Source: Bacteroidota bacterium
GTDB taxonomy: Bacteria; Bacteroidota; Bacteroidia; Bacteroidales; Prolixibacteraceae
Length of the DNA stretch: 43,399 nucleotides
Direction: 5' to 3'
Assembly: GCA_030698405.1 (NCBI GenBank)
Contig: JAUYMU010000024.1
Span: 1-43,399, forward strand
In this document: piece by piece, positions 22,567 to 36,031 of the stretch
How positions within the stretch are numbered: the first letter of the stretch is position 1
Layout: every line of letters begins with the position of its first letter
The notes under the pieces: generated by a model
What the model saw: only the letters and a program-made list of their open reading frames with translations
Databases searched by the model: none
What the model was told of the DNA's origin: nothing
Program-made: the position numbers and the translations under genes

Positions 22567-23646
22567 TCATTTGACAACACCTGACACATAATCTTTTTTA
22601 TTTTTGAGTACAAAATATATTCGGTTTAGCATTTTTCGTGCAATTCGCACAATCGCTTTATTTGCTTCCATTCTTTTAATATAGCCAAGATAACTCATCA
22701 TCATTGCCGGATCATGCCTTACTGCAATCCACGAATTTTCGATTAATAAGCTACGCAGTATGTTGTTCCCACGAAAGGTCATTTCTCCATTGTTTGCTTT
22801 TTCACCTGATGAATGATAATTGGGAACTAATCCCACAAAACCTGCAAAGGAATCTGTGTTCCTGAACCGTTCAATTGTTTCAATTTCCGTTAACAAAGTA
22901 ATTGCTGTTATTAGCGCGATTCCCGGGATGGTTCGCAACAACGCAACATTTTCAGCATATCTTTCACTACGCGACAACAACCGAATTTTGCGCAGCACTT
23001 CCAAAAGAAGCATCCTTTGGTGTGCGACCTCTTGCAATAATATTTTCAGTGCTTGTGTGCCTGATTCATGTTGCAATGAAACCTCATTGAGCCATTTCAT
23101 GAAACGGTTAGACCAATGGGAGCCAGACTTTTCAAATTCTGGAGGATAAGCAATTCCGTAGAAATACAAGAACGATTTTATACGTTGTTTGAATCGTACC
23201 TGATCTTTGACCAAAGTTGAACGCATTCGTACCAATGACCTATCACCCAATGTTTCTATACTGGGAACATAAATCCCTTTCAAGTCGCCAGAACGCAAGG
23301 ATCGGGCAAGTTTCCGGCTATCGGTCGGATCATCCTTTTGCAATTGTTCCTTTTGGGAGGTAGGAACATCTGCCGGATTAATGACGATGTTATTTATTCC
23401 CATTTCCTTCAGTTTGTAATGTGTCCAAAATCCACTAAAGCCAGCTTCATATACAGAATTGTAATCGCCACCAGGAAAATTACGTCTTAAGTAGTTGCAC
23501 AATATTTCTGTGCTGCTTGGCTGAGTAAAGGTCTTGTGCATTAGTTCTTCAGTCATTATTGTTACTGTCCAACTTTTCAAATGTACATCAATACCGACAA
23601 AAATATTTTGTCCTTTGAAATCTAATCCCGTCTTTTGTGTTTGCAT
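22567..23646 (-). CDS. IS110-family transposase (DEDD recombinase)
   Basis: A 359-residue protein from the ATG at 23646 (MQTQKTGLDFKGQNIFVGID). An in-frame TTG at 23682 would lengthen it, but that codon overlaps a TATTTTTG -7-like box. The RuvC-like domain carries the DEDD set: Asp20 in VGIDVH, Glu67 in VYEAGFSGF, and Asp106/Asp109 in DDPTDSRKLA. A coiled middle follows, then the C-terminal domain (LLRTIPGIALITAITLLTEI, FAGFVGLVPNYHSSG with the likely catalytic Ser, GNNILRSLLIENSW). It appears intact, so the element may still be active. Confidence 0.93.
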   Translation of the reverse strand: MQTQKTGLDFKGQNIFVGIDVHLKSWTVTIMTEELMHKTFTQPSSTEILCNYLRRNFPGGDYNSVYEAGFSGFWTHYKLKEMGINNIVINPADVPTSQKEQLQKDDPTDSRKLARSLRSGDLKGIYVPSIETLGDRSLVRMRSTLVKDQVRFKQRIKSFLYFYGIAYPPEFEKSGSHWSNRFMKWLNEVSLQHESGTQALKILLQEVAHQRMLLLEVLRKIRLLSRSERYAENVALLRTIPGIALITAITLLTEIETIERFRNTDSFAGFVGLVPNYHSSGEKANNGEMTFRGNNILRSLLIENSWIAVRHDPAMMMSYLGYIKRMEANKAIVRIARKMLNRIYFVLKNKKDYVSGVVK

Positions 23647-23737
23647 AAGTCTTTGAGTTTTATTGGTTAATCCTAAAATCAAAAATAATACTATTATGGC
23701 TTATACTTTCATCTAAGCTCAATTACAAACATAGGGA

Positions 23738-25386: not shown

Positions 25387-25634
25387 TGGTTTTTAATTTA
25401 GATTCAAGACACAAGATAACAGATACAAGACACCAAACAGAAAATAATTCAGGATTCTGAAAGATTTGTCAAGTGAGCAAATTACACTTTAGCTTTTGGA
25501 ATTGCAGTTCCTAAATAACCAAATACCAAAAGGCATTCTCAAATGTTTGGGATTAATAACAGTTTGCCCCGGGGATTCCCGGAAAAACCTTGTGAAGTCG
25601 TAAAATGGAATTACAAAAAACGGAATTAACTGCG

Positions 25635-25747: not shown

Positions 25748-25856
25748 GCCAAGGACAAAATATTCTTAAAAAAGGGTGATTTTTTTTAATCGGAGAAAAC
25801 ACACCCTTTATAAAATATTCCTACAGCTTGCACAACGTTAAGCTAATGTTGCATTT

Positions 25857-25884
25857 TTGTAACATACAAATTTGTATGTTACAA
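25857..25884. promoter_or_regulatory. Perfect 28-bp palindrome over the ATPase promoter
   Basis: The left arm TTGTAACATACAAA is followed directly by its exact reverse complement. The right arm contains the -33 TTTG of the promoter at 25871-25902, so a dimeric regulator bound here would block RNA polymerase. Confidence 0.6.
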
Positions 25885-25902
25885 TTTTATATGCTATATT
25901 TG
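25871..25902 (+). promoter_or_regulatory. Consensus promoter of the decayed ATPase gene
   Basis: TTTG (25871-25874), 20 bp, then TATATTTG (25895-25902): a full match to the consensus. Transcription would begin about 10 bp before the ATG at 25921. Confidence 0.6.
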
Positions 25903-25920
25903 TATTAAAACTTAAACATA

Positions 25921-26223
25921 ATGAAAGAGGCTCCATTTGTATTTGGAAAACTGGCGACTCAAGTTGATTTTACAGATCGTGAAAAAGAAGCATCCCAACT
26001 TGCTTCAAATTTCAGGTCATTGGTAAATACAATTATCGTATCGCCCCGGCAATGAGGTAAAACATCGCTGGTTGACCGTGTGTCGGAATTGCTAAACAGA
26101 GAAGAACCTGATTTGAAGATTTGCCACATCGACTTATAGAATATCAGAACAGAAGAAGGTTTTCTCAATCTGTTTACAGCCAACTTACTACATTCACTAA
26201 AGCAGATGAATATTGACAATTAA
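25921..26223 (+). pseudogene. Decayed, truncated AAA-type ATPase
   Basis: The frame reads MKEAPFVFGKLATQVDFTDR, EKEASQLASNFRSLVNTIIV, then SPRQ-stop-GKTSLVDRVSELL, HIDL-stop-NIRTEEGFLNLFTANLL. Relatives have SPRRWGKSSLV as Walker A and DLYNIR or DLFNIR as the next strand, so TGA (26053) has replaced Trp and TAG (26137) has replaced Tyr. Full proteins of this ATPase group are near 370-400 residues; only about 100 codons remain. The promoter in front is still perfect. It marks the left edge of the AT-rich island. Confidence 0.75.
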
Positions 26224-26297
26224 CATTATTTAACAAACGGGGGGGGTAACCTTTATGTTGTTTTCAGGATTAATAGTAGAATATAGTTATTAATCTG

Positions 26298-26316
26298 TAG
26301 GATATAAAATATCCTA
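26298..26316. promoter_or_regulatory. Palindrome upstream of the peptide cluster
   Basis: TAGGATAT-AAA-ATATCCTA, 8-bp perfect arms, about 70 bp before the first gene of the cluster. A possible operator. No consensus promoter was found nearby. Confidence 0.35.
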
Positions 26317-26384
26317 AACTGAAAAGCTATCCAGCAATCGTTTTAATAAAATTTCAATTCAACATTGAAATAAAAAAAATCACC

Positions 26385-27998
26385 ATGGTAATTAAATTTG
26401 AATCAAATGTAAATGCAACGATCTCTTATTTGAAATTGCTAAAAGTAAAAGTTAACAATTCAACTGTAGATGATACATTGCAAAACCACCCTGATTGGCC
26501 AAGTTTGCTTTGCATTAGCGATTCGTTAAATACGTGGAATGTTCCAAATGCTGCTGGTAAAATTGAGGTAACAGAAATTGACCAACTACCTACACCCTTT
26601 ATGGCTTACACCAACAATGTTGAAAATTCGTTGGAAATTGTCACTGAAGTTTCCGAAAAAGAAATTATAGTATACTCAGCAAAGCAGAATAAGCAAATTA
26701 TAGAGAGTAAAGAATCATTTTTGAAAAGGTGGAAAGGAATTTATTTAATAGCAGAAAAAATCGAAAAATCGGGTGAAAAAGATTTTGAATTAAACAAAAA
26801 TAAGGCATTTGTCAGAAGCCTTATCCCTATTTCTTTATTTATTTTGCTGACGATTATCTCCTTTATATTCTTAATCCGAAATTTAGGTTCATCAAAAATC
26901 GAAAGTGATTTCCTAATCTACCTCCAATATGTCATTTTAATGATTGGAGTTTTTGTAACCACTCTTTTGTTGTGGTACGAAATAGACAGAGACAATCCTT
27001 TGTTACACAAGGTATGCACAGGGATTGCAAAAGGAAATTGTGATGCCATTCTTAGTAGTAAACAATCCAAAGTGTTAAGTTGGCTTAGTTGGAGCGAAGT
27101 GGGTTTTTTCTATTTCGCAGTTGGATTAATTACTTTATTGTTTGCTACCCCTTTGAATAATTCCATATCAATAATCGGATATTTGAATATCTTAGCTTTA
27201 CCCTACACTATTTTTTCTATTTATTATCAGTCAGTTGTAGCAAAGCAATGGTGTGTGCTTTGTCTTTCAGTCCAAGCTTTATTAGTATTGGGAGGCATTA
27301 ATATTATTGTTAATAGATTATTGCTACCGATATTACAAATTCCAATAGATTTCCTCTTTAAAAGTATATTGTTCTACTTATTACCTGTAATTGGCTGGTA
27401 TGCCATAAAACCGTATTTACTCCGACTACAAGAAGCCAAAAACACGAAGAGAGAATATCTGCGCATAAAGTTCAATTCGGAAATTTTTGAAACACTGCTA
27501 AAAAAACAAAAGCAAATTACTTTTCCAACAGATGGAATTGGTATTGATTTCGGGAATCCAGAAGCAACCAATACTCTTGTAAAAGTTTGTAATCCATATT
27601 GTGGACCTTGTAGCAAAGCACATCCTAAGATAGAAAAGTTATTAGAAGAAATACCAAACTTAAAAGTAAAAGTGATATTTACTACACCCAATGACCCTAA
27701 TCACGATGCTTTTAAACCAATTAATTATTTATTGGCAATTAGGGATCAAAATAAAAGCGATGAAATAATTAAACATGCAATGGACGATTGGTATTTGGCT
27801 GAAAAAAAAGATTACGAACGTTTTGCATCTAAATATCCTATAAATGGAAAGTTGGAAAAACAAGGTAATAAGATTAATGCAATGTTTAAATGGTGTAACA
27901 ATATGGAAATAAATTTTACACCTACTATTTTTATTAACGGTTATCAATTACCCGAACCTTATAACATTGAAGATTTACAATATTTCCTTTTAGAATAG
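26385..27998 (+). CDS. C39-like/VKOR/thioredoxin fusion, disulfide-forming protein
   Basis: A 537-residue membrane oxidoreductase. Residues 1-125 resemble a C39 peptidase fold (HPDWPSLLCISDSLNTWNV, LPTPFMAY) but lack the catalytic Cys and His. Residues 142-340 are a VKOR domain of several membrane helices with the Cys pair 211/219 and the CVLC motif 290-293. Residues 370-537 are a DsbA-like thioredoxin domain with CGPC (406-409) and the cis-Pro loop FTPTIF. VKOR plus thioredoxin makes disulfides using quinone. It is the first gene of a cluster encoding a six-cysteine peptide and its exporter, so that peptide is the likely substrate. The inert C39-like part may bind leader peptides (inference). 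Confidence 0.87.
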   Translation: MVIKFESNVNATISYLKLLKVKVNNSTVDDTLQNHPDWPSLLCISDSLNTWNVPNAAGKIEVTEIDQLPTPFMAYTNNVENSLEIVTEVSEKEIIVYSAKQNKQIIESKESFLKRWKGIYLIAEKIEKSGEKDFELNKNKAFVRSLIPISLFILLTIISFIFLIRNLGSSKIESDFLIYLQYVILMIGVFVTTLLLWYEIDRDNPLLHKVCTGIAKGNCDAILSSKQSKVLSWLSWSEVGFFYFAVGLITLLFATPLNNSISIIGYLNILALPYTIFSIYYQSVVAKQWCVLCLSVQALLVLGGINIIVNRLLLPILQIPIDFLFKSILFYLLPVIGWYAIKPYLLRLQEAKNTKREYLRIKFNSEIFETLLKKQKQITFPTDGIGIDFGNPEATNTLVKVCNPYCGPCSKAHPKIEKLLEEIPNLKVKVIFTTPNDPNHDAFKPINYLLAIRDQNKSDEIIKHAMDDWYLAEKKDYERFASKYPINGKLEKQGNKINAMFKWCNNMEINFTPTIFINGYQLPEPYNIEDLQYFLLE

Positions 27999-28129
27999 TT
28001 TTATTTAAAAGCAAATAACAGAAAAATTCAATGATAAGTATTGTGCACGGTGCTTATAGTTGCCATTGAATTAAATAAACGGTAAAGTTTGCAACTGCTG
28101 TACCATAAATTTCTAAATTGTATAAAAAA

Positions 28130-28324
28130 ATGGAAAAAATCAAAATGAGCCTTGCAAACATTCAAGGCAAACTAAGTAGAGTTGAAATGAGAAACATAAT
28201 GGCTGGTAGTGGAACAAGCACGTGCCCATTGAGTTGTGGGAGTAAATGTGTTTCAAATAGTTCAAGCTATACTTGTCAGTGCTATCATGCGGGAACAAGT
28301 AATGAATATTGTGGAAAACATTAA
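28130..28324 (+). CDS. Six-cysteine secreted peptide precursor (GG-Bacteroidales-type leader)
   Basis: A 64-residue peptide from the ATG at 28130; a TTG four codons upstream is less likely. The leader MEKIKMSLANIQGKLSRVEM plus RNIMAGSG matches the natural-product precursor pattern of Bacteroidota (LSR.EM..IMAG.G, TIGR04149-like from memory), cut by C39 peptidases at the Gly-rich site. The core from about residue 27 is rich in Ser, Thr and Cys, with Cys at 32, 36, 40, 49, 51 and 61 and a C-terminal GKH. Six cysteines fit three disulfides, matching the VKOR/thioredoxin genes on both sides. Activity, antibacterial or signalling, cannot be told. Confidence 0.85.
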   Translation: MEKIKMSLANIQGKLSRVEMRNIMAGSGTSTCPLSCGSKCVSNSSSYTCQCYHAGTSNEYCGKH

Positions 28325-28339
28325 ATGATTATCAATCTT

Positions 28340-28368
28340 TTGGGGGTTAGCACTATGCTAATCCCCAA
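28340..28368 (+). terminator. Hairpin after the precursor gene, possible attenuator
   Basis: TTGGGGGTTAGC pairs with GCTAATCCCCAA around ACTAT (12 bp, one G-U pair). No long T-run follows, so it may act as a partial terminator or protect the 3' end of an abundant precursor mRNA. It starts 16 bp after the stop codon. Confidence 0.6.
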
Positions 28369-28520
28369 ATTAAAGATGGTTCTATAACATTTTTTAAAGG
28401 TGACAATTTTTCAATATTTGATCAGGCTAATGAGGTTAAGATCAGTGTGATTAGATTTCTGCTTTTCTGTAGATTAAATGTTATTCAAATGATATTTTTC
28501 AAATCTTAAAATTAAATAAT

Positions 28521-29570
28521 ATGTATAAATATTATTGCGCTCTATTAATTTTGCTGATTAATTTGCCTGTTGAGGTTAAATGTCAAAACAAATCAAAAAT
28601 ATTCGAACTCGATGGAAAGATTAATTCAAACACTGGTATAGTAGTTTTATTACCAATTGGAGAAGAAATTTATTATCCTAATCAAAAGGGATTTTATGAA
28701 ACCAAGGTAATGAATAAGCAATTTACAATTTCTGAATCGTGTTTGTACCCTTATGCTTTTAAAATCGGACTAAAGATTAATTCTGAATGGGTTTACATTT
28801 CAGATGTCTTTTGGGTTGATCCTGGAAATCAAAAACTAACTTGTAATATTGACTCAAGCAGAGAAGTTCCAATTCTTAGCAATATGACAATGAAAGAATT
28901 AACAGGTACTTATGCTAGTTCATTTAATGCTGCCGAATTCAATAGTACAGGACACGATAGCGATTCGATTTTATTGAATTATACTAAGGCAAATCCTAAT
29001 TCTTTTGTGAGCTTATGGAAACTAATATATGAGTTTTCTGGTAATGGCTATGAGTCAATATATGATTCAATATATGCACAATTTTCGACAACAATTAAAA
29101 ATACATATACTGGAAAAGTATTGGCAAAGAAACTGAATGCAGCAAGAATTGTAAGAATCGGTAGTATTTTTCCCGATTTAAATCTTTCGGATTCGAAAAA
29201 CCAGAAAGTTCTTACACTTACGAATAGTCATAATAAATTTACCTTAATTGAATTCTGGAATATCCACTGTGGACCCTGCATTAAACAATTCGACGCATTA
29301 AAAAATTTGTATTCTACCTATAATGCCAAAGGCTTTTCTATAATTGGAATCTCGAATGACAAAATAGAATCAATAAATGCTTGGAAGAATTTAATAAAAA
29401 AACACCAACTCCCATGGAAACAATTTCTGGATTTCAATGGTAAAGAGTGTGCGAATTTGAGCATTTATGTATTGCCATCAAATTACTTGTTAAATGAAGA
29501 GGGTGAAATTATTGCAAAAAACATTAGTACAAATGATCTGTCTTCATTTTTAAAAATGAATTTGAAATAA
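28521..29570 (+). CDS. TlpA-like thioredoxin with signal peptide
   Basis: A 349-residue periplasmic oxidoreductase. MYKYYCALLILLINLPVEVK is a signal sequence followed by Cys-Gln, possibly a lipobox but a weak one. An N-terminal beta-rich region of the DUF4369 style (FELDGKINSNTGIVVLLPIG) leads to a C-terminal TlpA/AhpC-type domain starting IGSIFPDLNLSD, with WNIHCGPC (Cys250, Cys253) and VLPSNYLLNEEG holding the cis-Pro. It may reduce or isomerise wrong disulfides in the exported peptide or keep partners reduced. It lies between the precursor and glycosyltransferase genes on the same strand. Confidence 0.85.
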   Translation: MYKYYCALLILLINLPVEVKCQNKSKIFELDGKINSNTGIVVLLPIGEEIYYPNQKGFYETKVMNKQFTISESCLYPYAFKIGLKINSEWVYISDVFWVDPGNQKLTCNIDSSREVPILSNMTMKELTGTYASSFNAAEFNSTGHDSDSILLNYTKANPNSFVSLWKLIYEFSGNGYESIYDSIYAQFSTTIKNTYTGKVLAKKLNAARIVRIGSIFPDLNLSDSKNQKVLTLTNSHNKFTLIEFWNIHCGPCIKQFDALKNLYSTYNAKGFSIIGISNDKIESINAWKNLIKKHQLPWKQFLDFNGKECANLSIYVLPSNYLLNEEGEIIAKNISTNDLSSFLKMNLK

Positions 29571-29656
29571 ATATAATTTATTCTCGTCAAAAATAATTGA
29601 GATTGAATTATTACAGCTCATTCAATCATTAACTTCTCAAATAAATTAGTTACCCT

Positions 29657-30496
29657 ATGAATAAAAAAAAAATCGCCATTCTTACCTGTTGGTATGGTTC
29701 GTATCCTTGGTATTTCCCTTATTTTATTCATTCATGTGAACATAATTCGACCGTGGACTTTATAATTGTAACTGAAAACCGCGAACTAATTCCCAACAAA
29801 CCGAATAATGTAAAAATCATTCATAAAACGTTAGATGAATTAAAAACAATCTTTTCTGAGAAATTAGGATTTTCAGTAAGAATTGATTATCCGTATAAGC
29901 TTTGTGATTTTAAGCCGGCGTATGGTTTTTTATTCCATGAAATATTACAAAAGTATGATTTTTGGGGTATGGGTGATGTTGATGTTGTTTATGGTGATAT
30001 TCGTTCATTTATGACTGAAGAATTACTTAACGAATTTGATGTTATAAGCAGTAGGCATGATTATATAACAGGTTCATTTTGTTTGTTCAAAAATATCGAA
30101 TTCATTAATAAACTTTTCAAGCAAAGCAAAGACTACAAAATGGTCTTTAGCAAAAAAAACAATTATTGCTTTGATGAATGCAACTATTTATTTGAACATT
30201 TGACTAATGGAAGCTCAATATTTGATTTTCCTGACAATATTCAAAGTATGACATACGTGGTAAAAAAAATGGAATCAGAGGGAAGATTGAAAGCATTTTT
30301 TGATTTTATTATCGTTGAAGGTAACCCTGGCAATATCAAATGGGAGAATGGGAAAATTTATTATAAAAATTTATATGAAGCCATGTTTTATCACTTAATA
30401 TTATTTAAAGAAGTATGTAAAAAGAGAACAATACCAAACAGGAAATCAAACACATTGTATTTTACTCCGACAAGAATATTTACCAAACAACCTTGA
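29657..30496 (+). CDS. DUF6625-like glycosyltransferase
   Basis: A 279-residue GT-A-like protein: KKIAILTCWYGSYPWYFPYF at the N-terminus, DFIIVTENREL, YKLCDFKPAYGFLF, then the metal-binding DVD in WGMGDVDVVYGDIRSF (107-109), and DVISSRHDYITGSFCLFKN. These match small DUF6625-type transferases as I recall them. No membrane segment is seen, so it is cytoplasmic and could act on the precursor before export. Its stop codon shares one base with the start of the exporter gene (TGATG), so the two are translationally coupled. The precursor core has many Ser/Thr residues as possible sites. A role in surface glycans is the alternative. Confidence 0.75.
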   Translation: MNKKKIAILTCWYGSYPWYFPYFIHSCEHNSTVDFIIVTENRELIPNKPNNVKIIHKTLDELKTIFSEKLGFSVRIDYPYKLCDFKPAYGFLFHEILQKYDFWGMGDVDVVYGDIRSFMTEELLNEFDVISSRHDYITGSFCLFKNIEFINKLFKQSKDYKMVFSKKNNYCFDECNYLFEHLTNGSSIFDFPDNIQSMTYVVKKMESEGRLKAFFDFIIVEGNPGNIKWENGKIYYKNLYEAMFYHLILFKEVCKKRTIPNRKSNTLYFTPTRIFTKQP

Positions 30497-32688
30497 TGAC
30501 TTTCCCACACTACACCCAATACGATGCCATGGATTGTGGTCCTACATGCCTACGCATGGTAGCCGCACACTATGGTCGTATCTATTCGCTTGAAAACTTA
30601 AGGGAAAAGTCCCATATCACGAGGGAAGGAACCTCGATGTTGGGAATTAGCGAAGCCGCCGAGAATATTGGGTTTCGCACTACTGGTGTTAAGATTTCGT
30701 TTGAAGGTTTAATGGAAGCTCCTTTGCCATGTATTGTCCATTGGAATCAATATCACTTTGTTGTAGTTTACAACATCAAAACCAAAAAAGGAAAAGAAAT
30801 AGTTTATATTGCCGACCCTGCAGGAGGGAAATATAAATATACGAAAGATGAATTTTGCCGTTGCTGGATAAGTACCAAAGATGAAAGTGTCGAAGTGGGA
30901 ATTGCTTTGTTGTTGGAACCTTCGCCCGATTTTTATGAACAGGAAGATGAGAAAGTAACCCGCAAAGGGTTTTCCTTCCTTTTCACTTATTTAAGACCTT
31001 ATAAAGGTCTGGTTTTTCAACTTTTCATGGGCCTTCTCTTTGGCAGTTTATTACAATTGATATTACCTTTCCTTACACAATCAATTGTTGATTTCGGTAT
31101 CAGTGGACAGAATATCGGGTTTATCTATTTGGTATTGATCGCACAATTAATGCTTACATTCAGCAGTTCCGCCGTAGAGTTTATCCGGGGTTGGATATTG
31201 TTGCATTTAAGTACAAGGGTTAATATCGCCCTTATCCTCGATTTCCTGATTAAAATGATGCGTCTTCCCATGGGCTATTTCGATACGAAAATGGTGGGTG
31301 ATATTTTGCAGCGTATTAACGATCATAGCCGAATTCAAAACTACTTGACTAATTCTAGTCTAAGCATTCTCTTCTCTATTTTTAATATTATTATTTTTAG
31401 CATCGTACTTTTCCTTTATAATTTCATGATATTCGCTATATTCTTTATAGGAAGCGTAATGTATTTTGCATGGGTGTCGTTATTTATGAAACATCGGGCT
31501 GAATTGGATCATAAAAACTTTGCACAACAATCCGCCAACCAGAGCAATGTGATACAATTGGTAACCGGTATGCAGGAAATAAAACTCATTGGCTGCGAAC
31601 AACAAAAACGTTGGGAATGGGAACGTATTCAGGCAAAGTTGTTTCGGTTGCGTATCAAAGGGATGGCATTGGCTCAATATCAGGATTCCGGTGCAATTCT
31701 GATTAATCAAACAAAGAATATAATTATCACAGCATTAGTAGCTAAATTTGTTATCGAAGGGCAAATGACCCTAGGTATGATGCTTGCGGTGCAATACATT
31801 TTAGGTCAATTGAATGGTCCGATCGATCAGATTATCTCATTCTTTCGGGAAACACAGGATGCACAACTGAGTATCGAACGTCTGAATGAAGTACACGGTA
31901 AAGATGACGAAGAATCGAAAGACGAAGCACATATCCATGAGATACCAACCAGTAAAGACCTTACGCTCCAAAATGTCACCTTTGGGTATGATGTCACATC
32001 GATAGGCGAACCGGTAATAAGAGGAATTCATTTGACAATTCCTTCGGGTAAACAAACGGCGATAGTAGGCACAAGCGGTAGTGGCAAGACCACGCTTATA
32101 AAGTTGCTACTTGAATTTTATCCTTTACAAAAAGGAGATATTCTATTGGGAGAAAACAACCTGAAAAACTACAGCGTAAGGGAATGGCGAAAAAAATGCG
32201 GAGTGGTGATGCAGGATGGATTTATCTTTTCTGATAGTATCGCAAAGAATATCGCACCCGGTGTTGAGTCTATCAATAAGGAGCGATTACTAAATGCTGT
32301 AATTACTGCCAATATCCGAGAGTTTATAGAATCCTTGCCATTGTCGTACAATACAAAAATTGGTGGAGAAGGTCATGGATTGAGCCAGGGACAAAAACAG
32401 CGTATATTAATTGCCAGGGCTGTTTATAAAGATCCGGCATTTGTTTTTCTGGATGAAGCAACAAATGCATTGGATACTAATAATGAACGTGTGATTATGG
32501 ATAATCTAAAATATTTTTTCAAAGGGCGCACTTCGGTGGTTATTGCCCACCGATTGAGTACGGTCAAGAATGCCGACCAGATAGTAGTTCTTGAAAAAGG
32601 TGAAATTGTAGAAATAGGAACCCATCAGGAACTAACCAAGAAACAAGGGGCATATTATCGGTTGGTAAAGAATCAACTTGAATTGTGA
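30496..32688 (+). CDS. Peptidase-C39 ABC exporter (PCAT/bacteriocin type)
   Basis: A 730-residue protein that trims leader peptides and exports the product across the inner membrane. The start is the ATG at 30496, overlapping the preceding stop by one base. The C39 domain has QYDAMDCGPTCL with Gln8 and Cys14, His87 in QYHFVVVY and Asp107 in IADPAGG: a complete triad. Six membrane helices follow (about 155-440). The nucleotide-binding domain has Walker A GTSGSGKTT (about 525), signature LSQGQKQR (about 630) and Walker B FVFLDEA (about 648), then the HRLST switch. All motifs are intact. The cargo should be the six-cysteine peptide. Confidence 0.95.
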   Translation: MTFPHYTQYDAMDCGPTCLRMVAAHYGRIYSLENLREKSHITREGTSMLGISEAAENIGFRTTGVKISFEGLMEAPLPCIVHWNQYHFVVVYNIKTKKGKEIVYIADPAGGKYKYTKDEFCRCWISTKDESVEVGIALLLEPSPDFYEQEDEKVTRKGFSFLFTYLRPYKGLVFQLFMGLLFGSLLQLILPFLTQSIVDFGISGQNIGFIYLVLIAQLMLTFSSSAVEFIRGWILLHLSTRVNIALILDFLIKMMRLPMGYFDTKMVGDILQRINDHSRIQNYLTNSSLSILFSIFNIIIFSIVLFLYNFMIFAIFFIGSVMYFAWVSLFMKHRAELDHKNFAQQSANQSNVIQLVTGMQEIKLIGCEQQKRWEWERIQAKLFRLRIKGMALAQYQDSGAILINQTKNIIITALVAKFVIEGQMTLGMMLAVQYILGQLNGPIDQIISFFRETQDAQLSIERLNEVHGKDDEESKDEAHIHEIPTSKDLTLQNVTFGYDVTSIGEPVIRGIHLTIPSGKQTAIVGTSGSGKTTLIKLLLEFYPLQKGDILLGENNLKNYSVREWRKKCGVVMQDGFIFSDSIAKNIAPGVESINKERLLNAVITANIREFIESLPLSYNTKIGGEGHGLSQGQKQRILIARAVYKDPAFVFLDEATNALDTNNERVIMDNLKYFFKGRTSVVIAHRLSTVKNADQIVVLEKGEIVEIGTHQELTKKQGAYYRLVKNQLEL

Positions 32689-32731
32689 AAATCCCCCTAA
32701 TCCCCCAGATGATTTAAAGAATGATTGAACA

Positions 32732-34087
32732 ATGGAAAATAATAATAATAAAGACGAAACTAACTCTATAAGCATACCCTTCCGGGATGTTGGTGGGGCT
32801 TCTCCTATCGAATTGTCCAGCGACGAAGTGCAGGAGATATTGTCACGTCCTCCTCACTCACTTGTCCGGTATGGAATATCTATTATTTGTGGGGTTCTTT
32901 TTGTATTATTTATCGGTAGTTTCTTTTTTCGTTATCCTGATATTGTGCAGGGTGATATTGTCATAACTACTGAAAATCCACCTGTTTGGCTTATTGCAAA
33001 ATCGACAGGGAAAATCAAAGAATTGTTATGCTCCGATAAGCAGATGGTCAATCAGGGAGATTTCCTTGCTGTGATTGATAATTCTGCTTCAACTTCGGAT
33101 GTTCAAACTATGAAACGTTTGCTCTTTACTGTTCTTATTTCAGATTCGAGTTTTTATATCCAGAAAGAGTTGATAGTTCAATCATATGAATTGGGAGAAA
33201 TTCAGTCGAATTTTTCGACTTTCACAAAAGCGGCGATGAACTACGACAATTTTTTAACTTTGAACCTTATTAATCAGGAGAAAACCTCGCTGCAGAAGCA
33301 GATATTAGATCGTAGTATTTATTCATCTAACCTTCAAAAACAGTTAGAGTTGAAGAAAAAGGAGTTTAAGATTTCAAAATCGCCTTACGAGAGAGATAAA
33401 TTATTGTTTGAGCGAAAGGTTATTTCCGAATCTTCCATGGAAACTACCGAACTATCCTATCTGAATAAACAGCAAGAACTCCAACAACTTCAGACTTCAA
33501 TATCATTAGAAGATGTAGAATCTTTACAAATGAAAGAATCGGTCAATAAACTCTCTTTACAATATTTGCAGGAAAAAAATCAATTGTTTTCAGAATTGAA
33601 ATCTGCTCATCGCGAATTGATTGCAGCAATTGAAAAATGGCAACAAACTTATTTATTGATTGCTCTCCAAACAGGAATCGTTACTTTCAATACATTTTGG
33701 AAAAAAAATCAATTTATTAATTCCGGTGATAAAATTTTTGCCATAATATCACATAATCCCGGGCAATTGATCGGCAAGATAAAGGTTCCTTTATCCGGTT
33801 CAGGAAAAGTTCAAATAGGACAGTTGGTTAATATTAAGGTCGCGAAGTATCCGTATTTGGAATTTGGTGTCTTGCAAGGTAAAACCAGAAATATATCGCT
33901 GGTTGCGAATAATGAGTTTTATACCGTGGAAGTTGATTTTTCCGAAGGTCTGCGTACAACTATAAACAAAGAACTTGAATTTACAGGTGAACTCAATGGA
34001 ACAGCAGAAATAATAACAGATAATCGCAGCTTGTTTGAACGTATTATAACTCCAATTAATTACTTGGCAAAAAAATTCTTTAAATAA
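32732..34087 (+). CDS. HlyD-family membrane-fusion protein
   Basis: A 451-residue periplasmic adaptor for the C39 exporter. After a hydrophilic N-terminus with an SPIELSSDEVQEILSRPP stretch comes one membrane helix (YGISIICGVLFVLFIGSFFF, about 48-67). A lipoyl-like half (GDIVITTENPPVWLIAKSTG) precedes a long coiled-coil hairpin (about 150-300, with KQLELKKKEFKI and ERDKLLFERKVISES). A beta-barrel domain then contains GKIKVPLSGSGKVQIGQLVNIKV. This is the usual design for type I peptide export in Bacteroidota. It lies 43 bp after the exporter. No TolC-like gene is nearby, so an outer-membrane channel encoded elsewhere must be used. Confidence 0.9.
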   Translation: MENNNNKDETNSISIPFRDVGGASPIELSSDEVQEILSRPPHSLVRYGISIICGVLFVLFIGSFFFRYPDIVQGDIVITTENPPVWLIAKSTGKIKELLCSDKQMVNQGDFLAVIDNSASTSDVQTMKRLLFTVLISDSSFYIQKELIVQSYELGEIQSNFSTFTKAAMNYDNFLTLNLINQEKTSLQKQILDRSIYSSNLQKQLELKKKEFKISKSPYERDKLLFERKVISESSMETTELSYLNKQQELQQLQTSISLEDVESLQMKESVNKLSLQYLQEKNQLFSELKSAHRELIAAIEKWQQTYLLIALQTGIVTFNTFWKKNQFINSGDKIFAIISHNPGQLIGKIKVPLSGSGKVQIGQLVNIKVAKYPYLEFGVLQGKTRNISLVANNEFYTVEVDFSEGLRTTINKELEFTGELNGTAEIITDNRSLFERIITPINYLAKKFFK

Positions 34088-34229
34088 ATAAAATTGAAAA
34101 TAAGGTAAACTTGAGTCAAATCTACCTATTGGGATCGTTATTTATTTTTACCCATACAACAGTGATTATTAATGTAATATTTTGTAATTCAGTTCACAAT
34201 TGAATCAATACATTTATAAGTAATTTACT

Positions 34230-35125
34230 ATGACCGAAACCAGCGATTCCATAAAACCATGGGTCAGAAGCTTATTGATTCTTCTACCCTTTTTGGTTAT
34301 TGTCGGTCTTTTTCAAATGGTTGGCTATATTTTTTTAGGACTCGATCCAACCAACTTTCAATTACAGGAAAGCCCGGTTCAGGAAACAGTTGGTGCATTG
34401 TTTACTCTTGGAGCAACTATTGTAACTGTCGGAATCTTTCGCCGTTTTATCGATCAGGAGAGTTTCCAGAGTATGGGTTTTACCCGAACGTATATAGAAG
34501 GGAATCTGTTGCCGGCCTTGGATTAGGCGCTATAATAATGACGACCGGATTTACCACATTAGTCTTTCTTCATGAAATACAGTGGTTGGGAACAAACGTG
34601 GATACCAGTAATATCCTGCTGGGTACCTGTTTATTCGTCTTTGTTGCCTTTTCAGAAGAGTTACTTTTACGAGGTTATGTACTGAATAACCTGATGAAGT
34701 CAATGAATCACCTAATTGTTTTGGCGGTTATGTTTTCATTGATACATATTTTCAAAAACAATTTCTCCTGGATTGGCTTTTGGAACATTTTTCTTGCCGG
34801 AATCCTTCTCGGGTTGCCCTACATTTATACCAAAAGCCTTTGGTTGCCAATAGCTTTGCATTTCAGCTGGAACTTTTTTCAGGGAATAGTTTTTGGGTTT
34901 AACGTAAGTGGGCACGTAACCTATTCAATTTTTACCCAAACGCGAACGGCTGATACAATCTGGAACGGTGGAAAGTTTGGCTTCGAAGGTTCTGTTCTTT
35001 CGCTTGTATTTCAGATAGTTGCAATACTTGCACTTTGGTGGTATTACAGTAAGAAGTCAGAACAATACCAACTCGCTTGTGTACCGGTAACCGACCAACC
35101 ATTGGTTGAGAATCAGGTGGATTAA
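34230..35125 (+). pseudogene. CPBP intramembrane protease with a frameshift
   Basis: Two overlapping frames together give one CPBP (Abi/CAAX-like) membrane protease. Frame one (34230-34526) holds MTETSDSIKPWVRSLLILLP and the first two helices, ending LLPALD-stop. The second frame continues with ESVAGLGLGAIIMTTGF, the active-site motifs FSEELLLRGYV (EExxxR) and MFSLIHIFKNN (FxxxH), and LHFSWN, ending near 35125. The switch lies around 34505-34515 and is a -1 change; no slippery heptamer is visible, so mutation or sequencing error is more likely than programmed shifting. CPBP proteins often give self-immunity or processing in bacteriocin clusters, which suits this position. Confidence 0.75.
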
Positions 35126-35417: not shown

Positions 35418-35600
35418 ATGAAGTATTCCGAGTTTCACAGAAAGATTATACGAAACGGGTGGAAGTTCAGCCATGCTGAAGGCAGCCATTATTTTTATAC
35501 AAAAGACGGAATTCTTTCAGAACCCGTACCTTACCACGGTAGCAAAGAGTTGTACGAACCTCTAAGGAAAAAAATTGCAAAAAGCATGGGGCTTAAATAG
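35418..35600 (+). CDS. hicA: HicA-family mRNA interferase toxin
   Basis: A 60-residue toxin of the double-stranded-RNA-binding fold. KYSEFHRKIIRNGWKFSHAE leads to GSHYFYTKDG, which contains the catalytic His24, then a basic C-terminus (RKKIAKSMGLK). HicA proteins cleave mRNA and are blocked by HicB. hicB follows after 20 bp and the pair has its own consensus promoter. The toxin looks intact. Confidence 0.9.
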   Translation: MKYSEFHRKIIRNGWKFSHAEGSHYFYTKDGILSEPVPYHGSKELYEPLRKKIAKSMGLK

Positions 35601-35620
35601 CCTACTAAAAAAATACGACG

Positions 35621-36031
35621 ATGGAAAAATTAATCATTGAAATTGGGGCAAGCCCGAATCACTTTGGCGGTTTTGCCACCAATGTTGATGGCGTGTATGG
35701 AGCCGGTAACACACTTGATGAGTGTAAAGCTGACATATTGGAAGGGTTACGTTTGCTGATTAACAACCGCGAGAAAAGCCAGGCCCCGGTTCCCGAATGG
35801 CTGATTAACGGCGAATACGAAATTGAATACCGGTACGACGTTCAAAGCATCCTGAATTATTACGCCAATGTATTCACAAAACCCGCGCTCGAACGCCTGA
35901 CTGGTATCAACCAAAAGCAACTCCACCATTACGCTACTGGTCTTAAAAAGCCCCGCGAACCACAACGAAAAAAAATAGAGCTGGCTTTGCACCGTCTGGG
36001 CAGCGAACTACTGTCCGTTCGTTTCAGCTAA
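35621..36031 (+). CDS. hicB: HicB-family antitoxin
   Basis: A 136-residue antitoxin. The N-terminal partial RNase-H-like domain has KLIIEIGASPNHFGGFATNV and GAGNTLDECKADILEGLRLL. The C-terminal half carries a helix-turn-helix (LERLTGINQKQLHHYATGLK) that would bind the operon promoter and repress it. Longer HicB proteins with a DNA-binding tail are common in Bacteroidota. A strong terminator follows 20 bp downstream. Confidence 0.9.
   Translation: MEKLIIEIGASPNHFGGFATNVDGVYGAGNTLDECKADILEGLRLLINNREKSQAPVPEWLINGEYEIEYRYDVQSILNYYANVFTKPALERLTGINQKQLHHYATGLKKPREPQRKKIELALHRLGSELLSVRFS

What the first reader, a model, noticed from the sequence alone, without database searches (positions are those of the whole stretch)
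26385..35125. Putative new disulfide-rich, possibly glycosylated peptide biosynthesis and export system
In one direction lie a C39-like/VKOR/thioredoxin fusion, a 64-residue six-cysteine precursor with a GG-Bacteroidales-type leader, a TlpA-like thioredoxin, a DUF6625-like glycosyltransferase coupled to a C39-ABC exporter, an HlyD adaptor and a CPBP protease. The seven parts form a coherent route: oxidise, perhaps glycosylate, cut the leader, export, protect self. I know of precursor families and PCAT exporters in Bacteroidota, but not of a characterised product with this enzyme set.
Basis: partly seen in the sequence, partly recalled or inferred. Interest (0 to 1): 0.85.

Follow-up and report, generated by a model that had tools for sequence, protein, structure and literature searches.

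The report
Disulfide-peptide factory with a sugar-transferase
A small imported gene island seems to make and export a cysteine-rich peptide that is cross-linked by disulfides and perhaps tagged with a sugar, using a membrane oxidase that may work on the inner face of the membrane.

Summary
They lie on an 8.5-kb low-GC island (25749-34236); relative G009 has 709 bp there, followed by the same CPBP gene, so CPBP is native flank (frame split in the window). The C39-like/VKOR/thioredoxin fusion recurs across Bacteroidota: 49 of 66 usable loci have a same-strand peptidase-ABC exporter. Of 79 precursors found, 77 have an even number of core cysteines. The fusion's C39-like domain lacks the catalytic motif in 69 of 69; VKOR and thioredoxin cysteines are kept in all 69. 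Charges put its active site on the cytosolic side in 69 of 69, opposite to the two ordinary VKORs compared. DUF6625 models as a GT-A-like glycosyltransferase; nine exporter-linked copies form one clade and accompany Ala-Gly|Ser precursors, and Ser+1 precursors also accompany it in loci without the fusion. Best reading: a leader-guided oxidase closes the disulfides, DUF6625 probably decorates the serine region, the C39 exporter cuts and secretes. Chemistry, membrane side and activity are untested. New variant of a known kind (bacteroidetocin/glycocin-like peptides).

The parts
25749..34236 (.). inserted island (8488 bp, GC 33.3%) that carries the whole cluster
   Evidence: blastn to relative G009 C96 (L155): flanks up to 25748 and from 34237 match at 77-91%; 709 bp lie between them there
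26385..27998 (+). C39-like / VKOR / thioredoxin membrane fusion, 537 aa; six transmembrane helices; C39-like domain without catalytic motif
   Evidence: Pfam, conservation in 69 fusions, AlphaFold2 model mean pLDDT 91, charge bias
28130..28207 (+). leader of the precursor, 26 residues ending Ile-Met-Ala-Gly
   Evidence: read from sequence; same leader type in relatives; L-12, E-8, M-7 fit the PCAT leader consensus quoted in PMC6959990, with Ala for Gly at -2
28208..28324 (+). core peptide, 38 residues, six Cys, beginning Ser-Gly-Thr-Ser; end includes the stop codon
   Evidence: similar core in L044
28521..29570 (+). TlpA-like thiol-disulfide protein with a signal peptide and a CGPC motif; partner of the core
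   Evidence: Pfam AhpC-TSA E 1.4e-14; signal-peptide heuristic; pairing with the core
29657..30496 (+). DUF6625 protein, GT-A-like glycosyltransferase by model, DxD motif D107/D109
   Evidence: Pfam E 1.9e-59; alignment of 29; model and Foldseek; clade
30496..32688 (+). C39-peptidase ABC exporter (PCAT); motifs DCGPTC, HFVVV and DPAG present (read by eye)
   Evidence: Pfam C39 E 1.5e-34; matches PCAT1 4ry2 over residues 7-725
32732..34087 (+). HlyD-type periplasmic adaptor
   Evidence: HlyD_3 E 5.5e-7, type_I_hlyD E 1.5e-22, under its curated cut-off
34230..35125 (+). CPBP protease gene, split over two frames; native flank, NOT part of the cluster

Best explanation
The island encodes a ribosomal peptide pathway. 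(1) The 64-aa precursor is made with a 26-residue C39-type leader. (2) The membrane fusion docks the precursor, perhaps through its dead C39-like domain, and oxidises the six core cysteines: thioredoxin domain to VKOR cysteines to quinone (VKOR chemistry recalled). Its charge pattern and its likely descent from an exporter C39 domain put this chemistry on the cytosolic face. (3) DUF6625, a soluble GT-A-like enzyme, adds a sugar near the serine that follows Ala-Gly. (4) The PCAT cuts after Ala-Gly and exports the 38-aa core with HlyD. (5) The periplasmic TlpA-like protein is a partner for that core: isomerase or protector. The product is most likely a bacteriocin-like competition peptide. Shown by computation: gene set, linkage, cysteine conservation and parity, loss of C39 catalysis, charge asymmetry, GT-A-like model, Ala-Gly|Ser link. 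Inferred: every chemical step, the side of the membrane, and the activity.
For: Linkage: 49 of 66 usable fusion loci have a same-strand PCAT, 44 HlyD, 35 a TlpA-like gene. Cysteines: 77 of 79 cores even; 71 of 73 after removing similar ones, binomial p 3e-19. Fusion: C211, C219, C290, C293, C406, C409 in 69 of 69; catalytic C39 motif in 0 of 69. Topology: six helices; K+R on the active-site side 12.9 against 0.9, 69 of 69; loops 2-3 plus 4-5 carry 0.7 K+R on average, maximum 3, against 5 and 6 in two ordinary VKOR-thioredoxin proteins. Fusion L142 keeps an exporter-like DCGPSC motif. Glycosyltransferase: GT-A enzymes lead Foldseek (4ayl E 1.5e-5); nine exporter-linked DUF6625 copies are one clade, 97/93. 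Ala-Gly|Ser clusters have a glycosyltransferase-like gene in 12 of 12, others in 7 of 26, p 4e-5; with DUF6734, itself of unknown function, not counted: 10 of 12 against 5 of 26, p 3e-4. DUF6625 also occurs with Ser+1 precursors and a PCAT but no fusion in view: L157, L177, L178. The fusion is the only VKOR match in its genome.
Against: No product, enzyme assay or topology experiment exists. Positive-inside is a rule of thumb; controls were two ordinary VKORs of this order and one partly printed PDB chain. The PCAT1 leader-contact residue I59 aligns with a mostly polar position (Ser45, Ser in 57 of 69), so leader docking as in PCAT1 is not supported residue by residue. Seven clusters without Ala-Gly|Ser carry glycosyltransferase-like genes. 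DUF6625 sits with a GG|Tyr precursor in L181 and an AG|Lys precursor in L184; copies without exporter or fusion exist (L182, L183). A partial second DUF6625 copy in L035 (155 aa, 36% identical) was not in the tree. Loci are related, so Fisher tests are not independent. The core-to-TlpA link is weak overall (partial r 0.14, p 0.04).
Confidence: 0.5

Rival explanations
1. Same pathway, but the fusion is an ordinary periplasmic oxidase: C39-like domain, VKOR cysteines and thioredoxin all face the periplasm and fold the peptide after export; the C39-like domain serves as a chaperone.
For: VKOR-thioredoxin proteins are generally held to act outside the cytosol (recalled); the TlpA-like partner has a signal peptide; the six-helix model allows either orientation.
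Against: Charge bias is the opposite in 69 of 69, while two ordinary VKORs show the expected bias. By eye there is no signal peptide ahead of the ~140-residue N-domain. That domain matches an exporter C39, which PMC6959990 calls cytosolic. Split forms L147 and L149 carry a thioredoxin without an evident signal peptide (by eye).
Confidence: 0.3
2. DUF6625 does not touch the peptide; it is a surface-polysaccharide enzyme that happens to lie between TlpA-like protein and exporter.
For: Several DUF6625 genes elsewhere in the order lie beside other sugar-transferase or flippase-like genes (read by eye), and copies without exporter or fusion exist.
Against: Nine exporter-linked copies form one supported clade; gene overlap with the PCAT in the window; co-occurrence with Ala-Gly|Ser precursors, also in loci without the fusion.
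Confidence: 0.25
3. The product is not antibacterial but a signal, adhesion or matrix peptide.
For: No bioactivity is tested; no immunity gene was recognised; a related DUF6625-PCAT locus encodes large Ser/Gly-rich proteins behind such leaders (L178).
Against: Variable cores behind a constant leader (19 Ala-Gly precursors: core identity 26%, leader 71%) and NCBIfam 'bacteriocin-like' hits among relatives fit competition peptides; bacteroidetocins with a similar gene order kill Bacteroidales (PMC6671954).
Confidence: 0.3
4. The cluster is decayed or silent.
For: The precursor was found in 1 of 23 genomes of the genus; nearby lie an apparent ATPase remnant (25921-26219, by eye), an IS110-type transposase gene and a split CPBP frame.
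Against: All six cluster genes have open frames; the checked cysteines and DxD are kept.
Confidence: 0.1

Closest known systems
Bacteroidetocins (class IIf; PMC6671954: section 7 and passages read)
   Same: Bacteroidota; short leader, 4-Cys peptide with disulfide evidence; gene order membrane protein - peptide - thiol oxidoreductase - C39 ABC transporter, as in the window
   Different: The four-gene region has no glycosyltransferase or HlyD; its five-helix membrane protein is called unknown and I did not test whether it is a VKOR; its leader is 15-16 residues and cleaved after Gly-Gly
Glycocins (PMC12457901: abstract, outline and introduction read)
   Same: Precursor, glycosyltransferase and C39 PCAT; disulfide peptides; thermoglycocin and orniglycocin have three disulfides and a non-Gly-Gly cleavage site
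   Different: Here the enzyme is DUF6625; kinship with SunS/ThgS-type enzymes was not computed; oxidation by a VKOR fusion; no product known
VKOR-thioredoxin proteins (PDB 4nv2/4nv5/4nv6/3kp9)
   Same: VKOR core matched by profile
   Different: Extra first helix, N-terminal C39-like domain and reversed charge bias
VKOR of Aeropyrum pernix (Hibender 2017; only the title seen, in the reference list of PMC12453122; paper not held)
   Same: The title claims disulfide formation in two compartments, so cytosolic VKOR activity has a precedent
   Different: No peptide cluster or C39 domain in the title
TIGR04149 / leader_Chryseo / CCPGW precursor families (NCBIfam)
   Same: 17, 17 and 12 of 47 precursors match at E up to 0.01
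   Different: The window precursor matches none
RiPP clusters mined in Bacteroidales (PMC10352776, passages only)
   Same: PCAT exporters; some clusters with glycosyltransferases or an S-glycosyltransferase domain
   Different: The words VKOR, thioredoxin and glycocin do not occur in the main text

Membership tests
Bacteroidetocin (class IIf) | membrane protein - peptide - thiol oxidoreductase - C39 ABC order | tested here: met
   window order fusion - precursor - TlpA-like - (DUF6625) - PCAT; reference order
Bacteroidetocin (class IIf) | 15-16 residue leader cleaved after Gly-Gly | tested here: not met
   leader 26 residues ending Ala-Gly; reference
Bacteroidetocin (class IIf) | conserved core motifs of the family | not tested
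   no bacteroidetocin sequence was fetched
Bacteroidetocin (class IIf) | kills Bacteroidales (BamA as target: PMC8546649, search listing only) | not testable with these tools
   needs assay
Glycocin | glycosylated Ser, Thr or Cys in the core | not testable with these tools
   needs mass spectrometry; definition
Glycocin | glycosyltransferase gene in a precursor-PCAT cluster | tested here: inconclusive
   DUF6625 overlaps the PCAT start and models as GT-A-like (TM-scores about 0.3-0.44), but its activity is unknown
Glycocin | SunS/ThgS-type glycosyltransferase | not tested
   Pfam gave DUF6625 only; no direct comparison with SunS was run
TIGR04149 rSAM-modified peptide | match to the TIGR04149 model | tested here: not met
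   no NCBIfam hit for the window precursor at E up to 1
VKOR family | Pfam VKOR match and the four catalytic cysteines | tested here: met
   PF07884 E 5.8e-13; cysteines 69 of 69
Peptidase C39 | catalytic cysteine motif in the fusion's N-domain | tested here: not met
   0 of 69; seen in the relative L142

The most novel reading that the evidence does not exclude
The fusion is a cytosol-facing VKOR that grew out of an exporter's C39 domain and uses the dead peptidase to catch leader peptides, so a reducing cytoplasm makes fully disulfide-folded, N-terminally O-glycosylated mini-proteins (some relatives in the inhibitor-cystine-knot spacing of animal toxins) before export. It would be a leader-guided oxidative-folding machine that none of my literature searches turned up.
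Probability: 0.35. Interest if true: 0.85.

Novelty: new variant of a known kind. Interest (0 to 1): 0.7.

Why it matters
Disulfide-rich mini-proteins are sought as drugs and antimicrobials but are hard to fold in bacteria. A dedicated machine that oxidises variable six- to eight-cysteine cores behind one leader would explain how Bacteroidota make them and could be tested directly. It also gives two testable predictions: a VKOR working on the inner face of the membrane, and DUF6625 (a family of unknown function) as a peptide glycosyltransferase aimed at the first residues of the core.

Tried and rejected
CPBP as self-protection: rejected. A single S-linked sugar as in sublancin (recalled): made unlikely by even cysteine numbers, though two glycosylated cysteines beside three disulfides, as in orniglycocin (abstract), would keep parity. 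Anti-phage defence: PADLOC gave matches to the ABC exporter only (mad3, mad8, AriA), which I take as generic ATPase similarity. A sequence relative of DUF6625 with a solved structure: one hit at E 0.04 to a motility protein, not believed; the fold search was used instead. Promoter and terminator scans: 49 promoter-like sites against 41.8 expected, 7 terminators against 5.6, uninformative. Repeats at the island ends: one imperfect 22-nt inverted pair (25608-25629 / 34169-34190, 77%) lies near both ends but is no better than others among the 40 pairs. Canonical VKOR controls from plasmids: 7 records, partial matches, mostly DsbA-like. Literature: DUF6625 in 0 papers; VKOR with C39 and Bacteroidetes in 0; VKOR, double-glycine, Bacteroidetes, disulfide, precursor peptide: 3 papers, none naming VKOR; in a wider search the 40 papers listed of 2,833 name VKOR zero times; a knottin/Bacteroidetes/bacteriocin search listed 8 of 22 papers, none evidently on bacterial knottins.

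Rows dropped and choices: L067 was left out of the fusion alignment because its stated match holds a stop codon. Fusion statistics use 69 open frames of 480-620 aa, 51 sequences in alignment A1. The 79 precursors are defined by a leader pattern; L027 was missed by it and added by hand. The 80 next-gene counts count some genes twice where two precursors share one downstream gene. The DUF6625 tree used 28 of 29 rows; the row left out is the partial second copy of L035, itself in such a cluster. One search uses 66 of 96 fusion loci, those with 8 kb downstream or a PCAT in view; its families come from seed sequences at E up to 1e-5 (the PCAT and fusion at stricter limits). DUF6734 was counted as glycosyltransferase-like without proof; one search gives the numbers without it. 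My first enlarged Fisher table had a miscount and was replaced; the twelve added loci were read by hand and one of them, L152, has no exporter in view. Eight plasmid records matched the fusion; I opened four.
Full report
OBSERVATION. DUF6625's stop overlaps the exporter's start. The CPBP gene is different. It was found near the fusion in 1 of 66 usable loci, the window itself. In relative G009, whose MFS neighbour is 98% identical, the flanks are separated by 709 bp followed by the same CPBP gene; the window has 8,488 bp of 33.3% GC there. So the cluster is an inserted island, 25749-34236, and CPBP is its native neighbour, with its frame split in the window. The precursor was found in 1 of 23 genomes of the genus, the window's own.

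RELATED LOCI. One scan of genome contigs with the fusion gave 73 loci, many of them Chitinophagaceae and Mucilaginibacter. Of these 66, 49 have a same-strand PCAT, 44 HlyD, 35 a TlpA-like gene, 20 a glycosyltransferase-like gene (DUF6734 included), 5 a LanC-like gene and 1 CPBP. VKOR itself is rare: 20 of 393 genomes of the order and 3 of 41 relatives, one copy in the window's genome. Of 20 stretches around VKOR hits of the order that I fetched, 16 gave a match to the fusion profile; L142 is a seventeenth by eye.

PRECURSORS. A leader-pattern search over the loci found 79 precursors. Core cysteine counts are 4, 6, 7, 8 and 9 in 4, 54, 1, 19 and 1 of them: 77 of 79 even; after removing similar cores 71 of 73, p 3e-19. 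Among the 19 of the Ala-Gly class leaders are 71% identical on average and cores 26%, 13% outside Cys. Fifteen of 54 six-Cys cores fit an inhibitor-cystine-knot spacing (pattern recalled); shuffling all 79 gives 0.4. The window core does not fit it; its spacing is shared with L044. Known models catch part of the family at E up to 0.01: TIGR04149 and leader_Chryseo 17 of 47 each, CCPGW 12 of 47, none for the window.

THE FUSION. In 69 fusions the VKOR cysteines (211, 219, 290, 293) and thioredoxin cysteines (406, 409) are invariant and no C39 catalytic motif is present. The AlphaFold2 model (mean pLDDT 91.1, 51 sequences) has long helices at 134-169, 175-200, 236-253, 257-285, 291-309 and 321-362, which I take as the membrane helices. 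With six, the C39-like domain, both VKOR cysteine sites and the thioredoxin lie on one side. That side carries 12.9 K+R on average against 0.9 on the other, in 69 of 69. In two ordinary VKOR-thioredoxin proteins of the same order, loops 2-3 and 4-5 carry 5 and 6 K+R; the fusions have 0.7 there, at most 3. The part of PDB 4nv2 printed has KRWR in loop 2-3. The fusion profile matches the C39 domain of PCAT1 and runs on to its residue 186, which I read as into the first helix (E 6e-8). Fusion L142 still has a DCGPSC motif, but the residues aligned with the exporter's His and Asp are changed (my reading). Split relatives L147 and L149 have a C39-like-VKOR protein beside a thioredoxin without an evident signal peptide. 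Together these favour an active site on the cytosolic face. Against: the rule is statistical, controls are few, and a key PCAT1 leader contact (I59, PMC6959990) aligns with a position that is Ser in 57 of 69.

THE GLYCOSYLTRANSFERASE. DUF6625 has an invariant DxD (D107, D109) in 29 aligned rows. Its model (mean pLDDT 92.0) matches GT-A enzymes: 4ayl E 1.5e-5, human GTB, LgtC, GlyE, glycogenin; TM-scores are modest, about 0.3-0.44. Nine complete copies from eight fusion loci are one clade (97/93), sister to L004. L004 lies beside three tandem precursors reading Ala-Gly|Ser, a radical SAM gene and a PCAT, without the fusion in 18 kb. Among 26 clusters with an exporter and a recognised precursor, Ala-Gly|Ser goes with a glycosyltransferase-like gene in 10 of 10 and the rest in 1 of 16 (p 2e-6); for DUF6625 alone 9 of 10 and 0 of 16. 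Adding twelve hand-read loci gives 12 of 12 and 7 of 26 (p 4e-5); without DUF6734, 10 of 12 and 5 of 26 (p 3e-4). A separate phylum sample searched with DUF6625, not with the fusion, hit 14 of 395 genomes, own included; the 13 others were fetched and read. Five have a window-type DUF6625 of 276-283 aa beside an exporter or fusion (L176-L180) and all five have Ser+1 precursors. Three have a longer form (405-420 aa) in peptide-like clusters: L181 (GG|Tyr precursor), L184 (AG|Lys precursor) and L186 (beside a fusion fragment; no clear precursor); these do not follow the rule. The other five (L182, L183, L185, L187, L188) show no exporter or fusion by my seeds. L177 and L178 have no fusion in view and cores with 0-2 cysteines. 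So the fusion goes with cysteines and the short DUF6625 with the serine.

THE TLPA-LIKE PARTNER. For 80 precursors the next gene within 700 bp is TlpA-like in 40, 39 of them with a signal peptide by my heuristic; 12 more are other signal-peptide proteins. CxxC is kept in 36 of 37 TlpA-like partners. Core similarity goes with partner similarity somewhat (partial r 0.14, p 0.04), leader similarity does not (-0.04). Window and L044 illustrate it: similar cores and partners, different leaders.

COMPARISON. Bacteroidetocins (PMC6671954; section 7 and passages read) have the order membrane protein, peptide, thiol oxidoreductase, C39 ABC; deletion of the first or third gene attenuates activity. Their five-helix protein is unnamed and could be kin of the fusion; I did not test it. 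Glycocins (PMC12457901; abstract, outline, introduction) pair a glycosyltransferase and PCAT with disulfide peptides. Among annotated plasmids, Parabacteroides distasonis L151 (VKOR, precursor, DUF4369, LanC, two glycosyltransferases, PCAT), Spirosoma L154 (VKOR, two glycosyltransferases, PCAT, HlyD) and Emticicia L152 (DUF6734, VKOR, precursor, TlpA) show similar sets. Nothing in the listings of my searches points to a description of this set; those papers were not read except as stated, and the library lacks most subscription journals.

VERDICT. A real, conserved peptide pathway on an inserted island; new variant of a known kind. The cytosolic oxidase and the DUF6625 peptide glycosylation are the surprising, testable parts.

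Noticed in passing
window 22567-23682 (-): IS110-family transposase gene; in relative G009 the corresponding spot is about 250 bp without it.
   Followed up: partly
window 34230-35125: CPBP protease gene split over two frames; the matching pieces lie in one frame in relative G009. Decay or sequencing error not resolved.
   Followed up: partly
window 25921-26219: Apparent remnant of an ATPase gene with in-frame stops upstream of the fusion (reading by eye).
   Followed up: no
window 35418-36031: HicA-like toxin gene (HicA E 3.8e-9) and a following 136-aa protein without a Pfam hit, perhaps a HicAB-type pair.
   Followed up: no
L178 897-4690: DUF6625 cluster with PCAT and HlyD and ORFs of 283 and 451 residues, Ser/Gly-rich behind the same kind of leader, with at most one cysteine.
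   Followed up: partly
L069, L063, L088, L090, L030 and others: Bacterial cores with an inhibitor-cystine-knot spacing, 15 of 54 six-Cys cores; weak Pfam hits of one or two members to conotoxin and Toxin_7 families.
   Followed up: partly
L147 8283-9756 and L149 8331-9979: Fusion without thioredoxin domain beside a separate thioredoxin gene and a small Cys-free leader-like ORF, with no exporter matched in the stretch.
   Followed up: no
L103 and L104 (same genus, G013): Related fusion clusters with LanC-like genes and GT4-like glycosyltransferases.
   Followed up: partly
L181, L184: Longer DUF6625 forms (405-411 aa) in what look by eye like lanthipeptide-type clusters.
   Followed up: no
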